DNA of 33,983 bases, taken from the NCBI RefSeq assembly GCF_014696105.1, contig NZ_JACJPO010000014.1, forward strand, positions 1 through 33,983, written 5' to 3'. Origin of the DNA: Microcoleus sp. FACHB-1515. GTDB taxonomy: Bacteria > Cyanobacteriota > Cyanobacteriia > Elainellales > Elainellaceae. Position 1 is the first letter of the stretch. Each line of letters begins with the position of its first letter. This document shows, one piece after another, positions 12,026-33,267 of this stretch. The notes under the pieces were generated by a model, which worked only from the letters and a program-made list of their open reading frames with translations, was not told where the DNA came from and ran no database searches. The translations under genes were made by a program, and so were the position numbers.

Positions 12026-12110
12026 AAAATTTCCCCGCAACTGCTAGCAAACTTGACTTAAAGCCGGAGCCAGCTAGCGATCGCGGGGAACTAAAGTTTA
12101 ATTTCAGCGA

Positions 12111-12596
12111 TTACGACATCGACTGAATGATGTAGTCAAAGTAGGGAGCTGCCGTTGCCGCTTCTTCGGCACTCAACAGGCTCAACGAAGCCCGCTTGAG
12201 GCAGCGAATCGACTCGACCATGCCGGGAACCGGAACACCCAGCGAATTGTACATTTCGCGCACGCCAATCAAGCCAATTTTTTCGATCGGCTCCTTGTCG
12301 CCTGCCAGCACGCCATAGGTAATCAGGCGCAAATACCAGCCGTAGTCGCGCAGGCACAGGGCACGCTGCTTGTCGCCGTAGGCATTGCCGCCCGGAGCGA
12401 TAAAGTCGGGGCGCTTTTGCCACAGTTGTTTGCTGGCTTCTTGAACAATTTTCTTTTCATTTTCGGCAAGCGTGTTGGCGATTCGCAACCGCTGCTCTCC
12501 GGTTTCCAAATATTCTTTGATGCTTTTGAGTTCGCCTGTGCTGGGATAGCGCAATTCGTCGTCGGCGTTGAGAATAACCTGGCTTACTACACTCAT
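12111..12596 (-). CDS. apcD: Allophycocyanin alpha-B subunit (terminal emitter) ApcD
   Basis: The product is the 161-residue phycobilisome-core allophycocyanin variant that passes excitation energy toward the photosystems, chiefly photosystem I. It follows ApcD rather than ApcA along its length ([25 protein letters not shown]-type region [18 protein letters not shown], ending [10 protein letters not shown]). The phycocyanobilin-binding cysteine is C81 in [13 protein letters not shown]. ApcD is usually encoded alone, away from the apcAB operon, as here. No other phycobilisome gene is in the window. Confidence 0.95.
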
Positions 12597-26908: not shown

Positions 26909-26981
26909 GCGCTCTTAGTTCAGTTGGTAGAACGCAGGTCTCCAAAACCTGATGTCGGGGGTTCGAGTCCTCCAGGGCGCG
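26909..26981 (+). tRNA. tRNA-Trp (anticodon CCA)
   Basis: A 73-nt cloverleaf: acceptor GCGCTCT pairs with AGGGCGC (one G-T) with discriminator G. The anticodon stem is CAGGT/ACCTG with CCA at 26942-26944, and the T arm holds GGTTCGAGTCC. Its 3' half is the likely attachment site of the element that follows. Confidence 0.96.
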
Positions 26982-26997
26982 CTTTTTCCGTGAAAAC

Positions 26998-30991: not shown

Positions 30992-31157
30992 GGTCTTTCA
31001 CGGAATTGTTTGCATCGGTCATGCTCCTCGATCGAGAGTTGCGATCGCTCAAACCTTCATGAAGGCGCGATCGGAGTAGATCATTAGGGGATGCAGGGTG
31101 GCTACGACAGCAAATCATCACCACCCTGTCCAGTCCCTTACCGAGAGCGGAAGTAGA

Positions 31158-31205
31158 CTACCTACACATTAGGTAGTTGACTCCCGTAAGTCAAGTACCT
31201 ATGAT
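31158..31205. promoter_or_regulatory. Divergent promoter/operator region of the element
   Basis: Two palindromes lie side by side: CTACCT-N7-AGGTAG (31158-31176) and TTGACT-N6-AGTCAA (31177-31194). The two arms of the second form -35 boxes on opposite strands. Rightward, TTGACT (31177-31182) stands 17 bases before TATGAT (31200-31205). Leftward, TTGACT (31194-31189) stands 17 bases before TAATGT (31171-31166). The first palindrome overlaps the leftward -10. The XRE protein encoded directly to the right is the obvious candidate to bind here. Confidence 0.7.
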
Positions 31206-31464
31206 TGATTCAAACGGAGAGAGAAAGAGTAGACCTGGATTGAAAGCACTTCGACTAAGAAGAGGTTTTTCGCAGTCAGCACTAGCACGCGCAATCGGTG
31301 CTACGGAGAAGGCTGTAAGGAATTGGGAAAACGACGGTGCGATTCCCAGTTTTGACAAGGCTTATCTACTCTCGAAAATCCTGGAAGTCTCACTGGATGA
31401 GCTTGCTCACGAGTTCAATTTGGACTCTAAAGAGCATGAAGCAACGCACTCCAACAGCCAGTAG
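31201..31464 (+). CDS. XRE-family helix-turn-helix transcriptional regulator
   Basis: This 87-residue Cro/C1-type regulator has the HTH at about 15-70: GLKALRLRRGFSQSALARAI, then GATEKAVRNWENDGAIPS and LLSKILEVSLDELA. It probably represses the leftward genes and itself. ATG 31201 is the first ATG, but it lies inside the -10 element of the strong rightward promoter. If that promoter is used, translation must start downstream, for example at TTG 31240 (LKALRLRRG), which would still keep the whole HTH. A shared operon with the next gene is likely (58 bp gap). Confidence 0.85.
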   Translation: MIDSNGERKSRPGLKALRLRRGFSQSALARAIGATEKAVRNWENDGAIPSFDKAYLLSKILEVSLDELAHEFNLDSKEHEATHSNSQ

Positions 31465-31522
31465 CGCGGCTGATGAAGTGCTAACCCCCAACCTAATCAA
31501 CTAGGAAAGGAGCTAACTGTAT

Positions 31523-32134
31523 ATGACTACAAAACCGCTGCCGTCAGCGGACAAATTCACGCCGATCGATGACATCGCGACCGCTTGGGGCGTCACACCC
31601 AAGACCGTCAATAACTGGTGTGAATTCGTCTACCAGGGATTCGGCATCATGCTTCCCAGCAACGGCCCGTTTCCACAATGGGCCGTCAAACTTCTAGAGC
31701 TTTGCGCCAAACACATCTCCGAAAAAGCATCGCTCTACCATGCCGAAACCGGAGAAAAGCGCCGCCTCAAAGGTGCTGATTTTGTGGCAAAAATGCGCCG
31801 TCTGCGGGCTGAAGGGCATTTCCAAGAATTCGAGAAATTCCAGAATTTCCAGAATTTCCAGAATTCCGAAGATGCTTCAGATGATTTGTTCGCAGAGGTG
31901 GGCGCGATCGTGCGCGAAAGCGATCAGGAGTTGCAGCAAATCAAAGTTGCAATCCATCAGCATGAAGACGCGCAAATTGAAGAGCTAGCGCAGTTCATCG
32001 AGGACTCGCCACAGCGCAAGAAAGGTAAGCTGCTCAGTCGTTTGCAAACCGGAAAAGTGTTGCGCGGCGTGCAAGACACCGACCCAACGATCGGCACGAC
32101 GATCGACGTTGCTTACACCAAAGAAAATTTCTAG
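31523..32134 (+). CDS. HTH protein with iteron array in its coding sequence
   Basis: This 203-residue protein has a MerR-like HTH at the N-terminus (TPIDDIATAWGVTPKTVNNW) and helical, charged sequence after it. A Phe-Gln-Asn tripeptide repeat (EKFQNFQNFQNSED) lies in the middle, and an acidic coiled-coil-like segment (QELQQIKVAIHQHEDAQIEE) near the C-terminus. AGGAAAGGAG precedes ATG 31523. The tripeptide repeat is encoded by 9-bp DNA units of the form TTCNNGAA, and another array of such units follows the stop. The protein could be a DNA-binding partition or replication factor that recognises these sites; this is inference. Confidence 0.75.
   Translation: MTTKPLPSADKFTPIDDIATAWGVTPKTVNNWCEFVYQGFGIMLPSNGPFPQWAVKLLELCAKHISEKASLYHAETGEKRRLKGADFVAKMRRLRAEGHFQEFEKFQNFQNFQNSEDASDDLFAEVGAIVRESDQELQQIKVAIHQHEDAQIEELAQFIEDSPQRKKGKLLSRLQTGKVLRGVQDTDPTIGTTIDVAYTKENF
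31820..31864 (+). repeat. Iteron-like array 1, five 9-bp units inside the HTH gene
   Basis: Units in order are TTCCAAGAA, TTCGAGAAA, and TTCCAGAAT three times. Four of the five contain the dyad TTCNNGAA. The period of 9 keeps the coding frame. GAATTTCCAGAATTTC (31843-31858) recurs exactly, inverted, in array 2. Confidence 0.85.
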
Positions 32135-32173
32135 AAGTTCTAGAAATTCTGGAAATTCCGAAATTTCCAGGTT
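32129..32173 (+). repeat. Iteron-like array 2, five 9-bp units at the HTH gene end and beyond
   Basis: Units are TTCTAGAAG, TTCTAGAAA, TTCTGGAAA, TTCCGAAAT and TTCCAGGTT. The first overlaps the stop codon and the rest are non-coding. The first three have the TTCNNGAA dyad. The 16-mer GAAATTCTGGAAATTC (32143-32158) is the exact reverse complement of 31843-31858. Confidence 0.85.
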
Positions 32174-32178
32174 TGTTC

Positions 32179-32220
32179 AAACGGCTAGGAAATAGACTCC
32201 AATCAGATTCCTAGCCGTTT
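32179..32220. terminator. 13-bp hairpin after iteron array 2
   Basis: AAACGGCTAGGAA pairs with TTCCTAGCCGTTT around a 16-base loop. There is only a T3 run, then CACCCC, so it is a weak terminator or a structural part of the iteron region. The next gene begins 25 bases later. Confidence 0.5.
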
Positions 32221-32245
32221 CACCCCAGTGAGAGGCTATATACCA

Positions 32246-32821
32246 GTGAAACAAATTCCGAGACCGAATGCGGCAGTCTGGCGATCGATCGCCATCTGCA
32301 CAACGGCGGGACTGGTCATCATCATCGATAACCAGTACGCGCCAACTGAACCCGTTCAGGCCAACGGCTACCAATACAGCAAAGTCGATCAGCACTGCAT
32401 CAGCGCGATCGATCGGACGGCTTCAATTCCGCAAGACATCGCGGCTCAAGTTCGGGCACTGCCAGCATTTACTCCAGTGCAGCAGGTGATCGCCCAAACC
32501 GGACCGCGAGTCTACTGCGAAATCGCACCCAAGAGCATTCGCACGCCCAACGGCCCCATCTTCGGAAACGTCTATGTTCTGCCGATCGAGGGCACATCTG
32601 AAGCCGTCATCGGCTATGTCGATGAGTTTGGGCAGTGGCTCGGCAGTGAAGTTTGGAATCTTGCACCCGATCGAATGCCGACCCCTGAGCAGCGGTCGAT
32701 CGACTACTTCTTGCAACCTGGCAACGTTGATCGTTCAATCCTGCCCTACGATCGCCGCAATCTTCCTGCTCAACCCGACCAGCAACCCGCCCAACCCGCG
32801 CAGCCGCCGGAGTGCCGATAA
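32246..32821 (+). CDS. Membrane-anchored or exported protein of unknown function
   Basis: This 191-residue protein begins with a short basic stretch and one hydrophobic segment (SIAICTTAGLVIIID), which serves as a signal anchor or uncleaved signal. The rest is extracytoplasmic, with two or three Cys and a Pro/Gln-rich end (QPDQQPAQPAQPPE). GTG 32246 is preferred to GTG 32228 because GAGAGG lies 10 bases upstream. The TAA stop overlaps the ATG of the lipoprotein gene. No domain is recognised. It is the first of three cargo genes. Confidence 0.65.
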   Translation: MKQIPRPNAAVWRSIAICTTAGLVIIIDNQYAPTEPVQANGYQYSKVDQHCISAIDRTASIPQDIAAQVRALPAFTPVQQVIAQTGPRVYCEIAPKSIRTPNGPIFGNVYVLPIEGTSEAVIGYVDEFGQWLGSEVWNLAPDRMPTPEQRSIDYFLQPGNVDRSILPYDRRNLPAQPDQQPAQPAQPPECR

Positions 32822-33267
32822 TGAAAACTCAATTTCTGATTGCAATCGGCGCGATCGCCGCGCTGCTGAATGCCTGCGTTCCCTACCCCGACTCCGGCGG
32901 CGGTGGAAGCTATCGGATGCCGATTCCCGTCCCGGCTGGCGGCGGCGGCAGTGTTCCCCGCACCGTTCCACCGCCCATCGGCGCGAGTGATCTCCCCTCA
33001 CAACCGCTCTATGCCCAAGACGACCAAGACCCCGACTACTGGCAAGAGGACGGCGTGAGAGAGTTGCACGGCGCAACTTCTCCCGCCCAGTGTCAGCGCA
33101 TGGCCGAACGCTTTAGGCAAGAAGGCCGTAACATTCGACTAGTGGCAGCAAAACCGAATCGAAACCCCGGTTCAACGCTGCCCTACTACTGCGTTTTTGA
33201 AGGTCCCGACGCCTCCAGCAGCTACTTCCAAGACAACCGATACAACAGCCCAGACGAGTATCAATAG
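32821..33267 (+). CDS. Predicted lipoprotein of unknown function
   Basis: A 148-residue exported protein with a lipoprotein signal (MKTQFLIAIGAIAALLNAC) whose lipobox is LNAC at C19. The mature part has a Gly/Pro-rich segment (SGGGGSYRMPIPVPAGGGG) and then a compact domain with two Cys (PAQCQRMAERFRQEGRNI, PYYCVFEGP). The start overlaps the upstream stop (TAATG). No family is recognised. It probably works with the upstream anchored protein at the membrane. Confidence 0.7.
   Translation: MKTQFLIAIGAIAALLNACVPYPDSGGGGSYRMPIPVPAGGGGSVPRTVPPPIGASDLPSQPLYAQDDQDPDYWQEDGVRELHGATSPAQCQRMAERFRQEGRNIRLVAAKPNRNPGSTLPYYCVFEGPDASSSYFQDNRYNSPDEYQ

What the first reader, a model, noticed from the sequence alone, without database searches (positions are those of the whole stretch)
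31820..32173. Two TTCNNGAA iteron arrays, one inside and one after an HTH gene
Five 9-bp units lie inside the coding sequence (encoding FQN repeats) and five straddle or follow the stop codon about 300 bp away. A 16-bp exact inverted match joins the two arrays. The non-coding copy indicates selection on the DNA rather than on the peptide. With a primase in the same element, this could be a replication origin or a partition site bound by the HTH protein encoded there.
Basis: partly seen in the sequence, partly recalled or inferred. Interest (0 to 1): 0.78.

Follow-up and report, generated by a model that had tools for sequence, protein, structure and literature searches.

The report
Probable prophage HTH gene with arrays
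A probable cyanobacterial prophage carries a gene for a likely DNA-binding protein with short tandem 9-base DNA repeats both inside and beside it, and because the distant relatives found keep such repeats even where the non-coding copy has moved, they look like binding sites, most likely for control of that gene's own operon.

Summary
The arrays are real, and DNA-level selection is supported. In the 5.79-Mb genome the pattern TTCNNGAANTTCNNGAANTTC occurs only at these two places. I found nine other distinct loci encoding the 203-aa protein (45-59% identity), two of them on phage contigs. With the window, ten of ten carry a non-coding tandem TTCYRGAA array at the gene: just before the start codon in eight, at the stop codon in two (window, G040). 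Eight of ten pass the same array rule in the FQN segment. The array is the top shared upstream motif: 8 of 10 loci, at most 3 in 20 shuffled sets. In G040, G430 and (weaker) G633 the repeat also sits in another gene, in another reading frame. The window element is integrated in tRNA-Trp, with a 48-bp att repeat whose partner is on contig C22; kin carry terminase and portal genes, so it is probably a prophage. Best reading: an operator array for the co-encoded HTH-like protein, probably autoregulatory. Origin or partition roles are not excluded but lack specific support. There are no binding data, and the MerR-like fold match is weak.

The parts
31523..32134 (+). array gene: 203-aa protein, predicted N-terminal wHTH-like domain (about residues 11-97) and long helix 123-161 (low confidence)
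   Evidence: nine other distinct loci
31820..31863 (.). in-gene array, 9-bp period, encodes FQEFEKFQNFQNFQ; four exact TTCNNGAA units and one degenerate
32129..32172 (.). second array, starts in the last sense codon, spans the stop codon and runs into the intergenic region; three exact units, two degenerate
31843..31858 (+). 16-bp exact inverted match to 32143-32158
32143..32158 (-). 16-bp exact inverted match to 31843-31858
31177..31464 (+). XRE/Cro-type HTH gene directly upstream, same strand (likely repressor)
   Evidence: Pfam HTH_3 E 1.4e-13
32228..32821 (+). downstream gene 2; hydrophobic N-terminal stretch read by eye; no Pfam hit
32812..33267 (+). downstream gene 3; relatives downstream of the array gene in L141, L183 and L184
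33276..33785 (+). downstream gene 4; relatives downstream of the array gene in L141, L183 and L184
28683..30431 (-). 582-aa primase-like protein (weak call)
   Evidence: PHROG primase E 0.032; 47% identical over 420 residues to a protein in L182
28364..28690 (-). AlpA/excisionase-like small protein (weak call)
   Evidence: PHROG excisionase E 0.073; 52% over 60 residues to L182
27116..28207 (+). tyrosine integrase
   Evidence: PHROG integrase E 3.5e-12; 52% over 365 residues to L182 integrase
26936..26983 (+). 48-bp att core: 3' part of tRNA-Trp plus one base; exact copy at contig C22 8315-8362

Best explanation
The two arrays are cis-acting DNA sites made of head-to-tail 9-bp units (TTCYRGAAN, each nearly palindromic). 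They go with one protein family of probable temperate cyanophages and are most likely bound by the wHTH-like protein encoded there. The most likely role is control of that protein's own operon: the protein coats the array beside its start codon or before the next gene, and the in-gene array about 300 bp away serves as a second operator, possibly joined to the first by looping. Shown: the arrays exist, a non-coding array is present in 10 of 10 loci, and its place differs between loci (leader or stop codon). Inferred: that the co-encoded protein is the binder, that it assembles cooperatively as BldC does on 9-bp repeats, that it regulates transcription, and the looping.
For: Tandem arrays only here in 5.79 Mb. 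Non-coding array in 10 of 10 loci: upstream in 8, the run (units scoring 6 of 8 counted) ending 6-48 bp before the start codon; at the stop codon in 2. Shuffle p <= 0.0005 (2000 shuffles each) for each of these ten. It is the top shared upstream motif: 8 of 10 loci versus at most 3 in 20 shuffled sets. Array rule met in the FQN segment in 8 of 10; summed three-unit score 216, synonymous-shuffle maximum 212 in 5000. Phe codons in the segment TTC 26 to TTT 5, elsewhere 30 to 34, p = 7e-4. After its stop codon G633 keeps only a decayed 9-bp repeat but has an intact upstream array; G040 shows the reverse. The unit recurs in other frames: near the C-terminus in G535 and in another gene in G040, G430 and, weaker, G633. 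N-terminal model nearest MerR-type wHTH. In G430, G429a and G429b a sigma-70-like guess puts +1 within 15 bp of the array's 5' edge. Leader RNA folds no stronger than shuffles in 9 of 10.
Against: No binding data. The fold match is weak: no Foldseek hit at E <= 0.001. In the window and G040 no array stands upstream, so a simple operator at the gene's own promoter does not cover all cases. Promoter calls are consensus guesses and fit only part of the set. The three-unit synonymous-codon test is below 0.05 in only 2 of 10 loci (G040 0.009, G429b 0.029) and is 0.11 for the window; the worst are G535 0.78 and G430 0.53. G040 and G535 have only one exact unit in the FQN segment. The codon tests treat related loci as independent. 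The third arrays lie inside coding regions, not at a seen promoter. Similar tandem pairs occur outside the family in 9 of 60 relatives searched, one of them a three-unit array in a glycine-serine repeat gene.
Confidence: 0.5

Rival explanations
1. The arrays are iterons of a replication origin and the 203-aa protein is an initiator, on the pattern of lambda O whose iterons lie inside its own gene (pattern recalled, no call).
For: Array in the segment between an N-terminal DNA-binding-like domain and a C-terminal helical part; a primase-like gene in the same element (weak) with a relative in the G482 element.
Against: No AT-rich region next to the arrays in the window: in 60-bp steps from 31400 to 32539 only the two array steps are low in GC (36.7% and 30.0%); the other steps are 45-62%. 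In kin the usual non-coding place is directly before a ribosome-binding site.
Confidence: 0.13
2. The arrays are a segregation site (centromere-like) bound by the protein, as StbA with its two sets of five 9-bp repeats on R388.
For: Number and length of repeats resemble stbDRs, and in that paper StbB (putative ATPase) was not required for stability (PMC3098194, passages seen).
Against: stbDRs are spaced by 2 bp and lie around the promoter; here the units are contiguous and one array is coding. The element is integrated with an att repeat. No match in 72,556 plasmid records with three different members as queries.
Confidence: 0.1
3. The arrays are bound by another factor (a neighbouring XRE or ribbon-helix-helix protein, or a host protein) and the 203-aa gene only happens to carry them.
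For: Small regulator-like genes lie near the array gene in several loci: XRE in the window by Pfam; the others read by eye, not by a family search.
Against: These neighbours differ between loci, while the 203-aa protein and a non-coding array go together in 10 of 10.
Confidence: 0.15
4. Peptide-level or neutral origin: FQN is a selected or slipping tripeptide repeat and the non-coding copies are slippage products.
For: The GHFQEF-FQ segment is conserved as peptide; most single-locus synonymous-codon tests are not significant; a glycine-serine gene in G032 shows that such DNA can arise from a simple peptide repeat.
Against: Non-coding arrays at the gene in 10 of 10 loci at 45-59% protein identity; different peptide readings of the same DNA unit.
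Confidence: 0.07
5. RNA-level element: the array acts in the mRNA leader near the ribosome-binding site.
For: Place directly 5' of the ribosome-binding site; the G430 leader (z -3.1) and the window stop-codon array (z -3.8) can fold.
Against: Leader folding no stronger than shuffles in 9 of 10 loci; an array also occurs after the stop codon and inside other genes.
Confidence: 0.05

Closest known systems
BldC of Streptomyces (MerR-like, PMC5859096; abstract start and passages seen)
   Same: Works on tandem 9-bp direct repeats of varying number, one protomer per 9 bp, head to tail; wHTH of MerR type.
   Different: BldC has 68 residues and no coiled coil; its repeat is AATTXXXX(C), not TTCYRGAAN; no in-gene array in the passages seen. 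The MerR-type fold of the present protein is only weakly supported.
StbA/stbDRs of plasmid R388 (PMC3098194; passages seen)
   Same: DNA-binding protein with two sets of five 9-bp direct repeats near its own gene.
   Different: Repeats TTGCATCAT spaced by 2 bp around the promoter of stbABC, on a plasmid. Here contiguous TTCYRGAAN units, partly coding, in an integrated element.
lambda O / ori lambda (recalled, no call)
   Same: Repeat array inside the gene of a DNA-binding protein, between its domains.
   Different: Longer iterons beside an AT-rich unwinding element (recalled); no second array before the ribosome-binding site.
RacA and other MerR-type wHTH proteins
   Same: Best fold matches of the model: RacA Z 5.9, 2.2 A over 64 residues.
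   Different: By the tool's own note Z below 8 may mean only a common arrangement; function of RacA is not implied.

Membership tests
BldC family | one protomer per 9-bp direct repeat, repeats in tandem | tested here: inconclusive
   contiguous 9-bp units shown; binding not testable
BldC family | small stand-alone wHTH without coiled coil | tested here: not met
   203 aa with a predicted long helix 123-161 (low confidence in that part)
BldC family | repeat consensus AATTXXXX(C) | tested here: not met
   the free base varies, so units read AATT, AACT or AAGT
MerR-type wHTH | MerR-like fold of the DNA-binding domain | tested here: inconclusive
   VIA Z 5.9 to RacA, several MerR proteins at Z 4-5.7; no Foldseek hit at E <= 0.001; Pfam MerR E 0.011 in 1 of 10 members
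StbA/stbDR system | 9-bp repeats spaced by 2 bp around the promoter of stbABC | tested here: not met
   contiguous units of other sequence, one array in the gene
StbA/stbDR system | plasmid stabilisation in cis | not testable with these tools
   needs an experiment
Par (NTPase-based) partition locus | partner NTPase gene | tested here: inconclusive
   none among seven window proteins scanned, but the element continues on other contigs
lambda O-type initiator and origin | repeat array within the gene of the DNA-binding protein | tested here: met
   array in the coding sequence
lambda O-type initiator and origin | AT-rich unwinding region beside the iterons | tested here: not met
   GC profile of the window in 60-bp steps; kin not profiled
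autoregulated operator | array at the gene's own leader or promoter | tested here: inconclusive
   upstream array in 8 of 10; window and G040 have it at the stop codon instead
prophage | integrase, att repeats and phage structural genes | tested here: inconclusive
   integrase and 48-bp att repeat shown; no structural gene recognised in the window element or in six proteins of its C22 end; kin G040 and G429b have terminase and portal genes. A satellite is not excluded

The most novel reading that the evidence does not exclude
A so far unnamed phage protein family builds a cooperative filament on contiguous near-palindromic 9-bp units and bridges two arrays roughly 300 bp apart around its own gene. 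The phages keep the second array although its place shifts between leader and post-stop region, and some carry further arrays in other genes in other reading frames, so coding sequence doubles as operator. This would be a new mode of lysogeny or operon control.
Probability: 0.2. Interest if true: 0.72.

Novelty: new variant of a known kind. Interest (0 to 1): 0.55.

Why it matters
If right, this is a compact natural case in which a protein-coding stretch is also an operator array, with a built-in comparison: the same repeat is read as FQN, as LE-type peptide and as non-coding DNA. It gives a defined protein and site pair for probable temperate cyanophages, whose control circuits are little known (recalled), and a testable case of cooperative binding on contiguous 9-bp repeats outside BldC. 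Three family members used as queries matched no record of the phage or plasmid collections.

Tried and rejected
Small terminase subunit with a pac site: considered because of the HTH and the in-gene site; set aside because G429b has a separate terminase small subunit gene (PHROG E 1.8e-31) and in G040 the terminase large subunit gene lies far from the array gene. RNA element: leader folds not stronger than shuffles in 9 of 10. Genome-wide short repeat of the host: rejected, tandem pattern only at this locus. A second pattern gave five loci, which look unrelated when read by eye.

Control for TTCYAGAANTTCYAGAA in 60 relatives: 11 genomes have a match. G000 and G429 are loci of this family; the other nine have one or two places each, read, mostly in genes that look unrelated (G032 a three-unit array in a glycine-serine repeat; G001 two arrays in one gene). 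At one mismatch, scattered single pairs occur elsewhere in G219, G429, G482, G535, G539 and G000, with reversed controls of 0 to 5 per strand.

Search of the order of G610 and a last viral scan gave no new homologue, so the prediction noted was not tested. Profile search of solved structures gave four weak hits, best E 0.034, none of a DNA-binding regulator. Paper searches: TTCTAGAA with cyanobacteria and repeat, no paper; prophage, cyanobacteria, iterons, tandem repeats, helix-turn-helix together, no paper; two wider searches, listings only seen. That the arrays are undescribed rests on these searches alone.

Dropped before the count of ten loci: G610 (same proteins and array places as G430) and three partial matches in transposase-like frames, G561, G464, G631. 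The G429b frame holds a TGA that cuts it short of the match; it was counted by its open frame and not mended.

Full report
Observation. The window is the whole contig C6 of genome G000 (33,983 bp). The 203-aa gene at 31523-32134 holds a 9-bp-period array at 31820-31863, encoding FQE FEK FQN FQN FQ(N). A second array at 32129-32172 begins in the last sense codon and spans the stop codon. Exact TTCNNGAA units: four in the first, three in the second; the other three are degenerate. The 16-bp exact inverted match is confirmed. In the whole genome the three-unit pattern occurs only here.

Element. A tyrosine integrase follows tRNA-Trp. The last 47 bases of tRNA-Trp and one more base form a 48-bp repeat with an exact copy at C22 8315-8362, so the distal end of the element is probably on contig C22. 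Six proteins of that end got no informative PHROG match, and no structural phage gene was recognised in the window element itself. An element in G482 (L182) has relatives of the integrase (52%), the AlpA-like protein (52% over 60 residues), the primase-like protein (47%), the XRE protein (39% over 61) and the array gene (49%), in the same order, with the array gene on the other strand. Other family members lie on contigs with terminase and portal genes (G429b, G040). The window element is therefore probably a prophage; a satellite is not excluded. That the host is a cyanobacterium is inferred: G610, of the same class as G000, holds the same array-gene proteins as the contig of a MAG titled Cyanobacteria bacterium.

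Homologues. Ten distinct loci including the window: two IMG/VR phage contigs, G040 (L009) and G633 (L175); a MAG contig, G430 (L141); and G219, G429a, G429b, G535, G539, G482 from genome searches. Rates, the window's genome counted where it was among those searched: 1 of 40 relatives, the window's own; 2 of 386 in the phylum draw; 2 of 36 in the order; 10 of 388 in the class draw, three of them partial; 5 of 42 in the order of G219, one partial; 1 of 63 in the order of G610. The draws overlap. The family is rare and patchy, as for a mobile element. Identity to the window protein is 45-59%. tblastn with three members (window, G482, G219) found none in 72,556 plasmid and 50,697 phage records.

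Arrays in the homologues (a run has units scoring at least 6 of 8 at 9-bp steps, two of them at least 7). A non-coding array is present in 10 of 10: upstream in G633, G430, G219, G429b, G429a, G535, G539 and G482, the run ending 6 to 48 bp before the start codon; at the stop codon in the window and G040. The rule is met in the FQN segment in 8 of 10; G040 and G535 keep one exact unit there plus weaker ones. G219, G535 and G539 have a further upstream array beginning 191, 180 and 346 bp before the start codon. G535 has one near its C-terminus; G219 has two exact units there, 15 bp apart and so off the 9-bp step. Upstream and in-gene arrays are 310-354 bp apart edge to edge in the seven loci that have both; the window's two are 265 bp apart.

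Is it selection on DNA? Upstream arrays: p <= 0.0005 (2000 dinucleotide shuffles each) in all eight; stop-codon arrays 0 of 2000 in the window and G040. The commonest 14-mers in the 200 bp upstream are array sequence, in 8 of 10 loci at two mismatches or fewer; 20 shuffled sets reached at most 3. In-gene array: summed three-unit score 216 against a synonymous-shuffle mean of 201 and maximum of 212 in 5000, but only 2 of 10 single loci fall below 0.05. Phe codons inside the segment are TTC 26 to TTT 5, outside 30 to 34 (Fisher p = 7e-4); Gln CAG 32 to CAA 9 against 68 to 52 (p = 0.016). Related loci are not independent, so these p values overstate the case. G040 and G633 group together (support 92/94, short of the tree tool's starred level). 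After its stop codon G633 has two ACTCGAAAT-type repeats at 9-bp steps where G040 has an array, and G633 has an intact upstream array that G040 lacks: one array decayed where another stands. The unit is also read in other frames: near the C-terminus of G535 and as LE-type peptide in a further gene of G040 (12035-12123), G430 (14873) and, with a mismatch, G633 (about 12135). In the six loci printed the coding FQN copies use TTCCAG where TTCTAG would be a stop in that frame; the non-coding copies use both.

The protein. AlphaFold with three sequences: about residues 11-65 at pLDDT near 80, C-terminal half poor; the first 100 residues with four sequences: mean pLDDT 76. Foldseek gives no hit at E <= 0.001. 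VIA ranks RacA first (Z 5.9, 2.2 A, 64 residues) and several MerR proteins after it; this is a lead, not proof. Pfam: HTH_23 in 3 of 10 members, HTH_17 and MerR in 1 each, all weak.

Mechanism. In G430 a consensus promoter guess TTGACA-16-TATGAT puts +1 at about -53, and the array begins at -55; in G429a both are at -32; in G429b +1 is at about -47 and the array at -32. Other loci give weaker or no such fit. An operator bound by the co-encoded protein is thus the simplest account. In the window the gene follows an XRE gene on the same strand with 58 bp between, so it may have no promoter of its own, and the array stands before the next gene instead; G040 shows the same array place but has its own upstream region, so this does not explain both. 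BldC shows that a MerR-like wHTH can bind 9-bp direct repeats head to tail (PMC5859096, passages); RdfS is an oligomeric wHTH of an integrative element (PMC11963761, passages). StbA gives a segregation analogue (PMC3098194, passages).

Limits. I have no binding, expression or experimental structure data for this family. The ten loci come from capped searches and partial draws. Functions of downstream genes 2 to 4 are unknown: no Pfam hit for the window copies.

Noticed in passing
window 26936-26983; contig C22 8315-8362 (L206): 48-bp att repeat in tRNA-Trp with its partner on another contig: the element starts in this window and probably ends on C22.
   Followed up: yes
window 32179-32220: Perfect 13-bp inverted repeat with 16-nt loop just after the second array (fold z -6.0); role unknown.
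   Followed up: partly
window 31157-31194: Two inverted repeats before the XRE gene, ACTACCT...AGGTAGT and TTGACT...AGTCAA, look like repressor operators (read).
   Followed up: no
G040 C1 12035-12123 (L019); G633 C1 about 12135 (L181); G430 C111 14873 (L163): The same repeat inside another gene about 9 kb from the array gene, read as LE-type peptide.
   Followed up: partly
L188 (G001 C597) 674-753: In the window's own genus, two arrays in one gene; by eye its protein resembles one in L141 (2459-3610) that has no array. The 203-aa family was not found in that incomplete genome.
   Followed up: partly
L161 4189-4196: A lone TTCTAGAA about 8 bp before the start of the terminase small subunit gene of G429b.
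   Followed up: no
L168 and L142, upstream of the array gene: A short open frame lies between two upstream arrays (read by eye), so an array may precede each of two successive genes.
   Followed up: no
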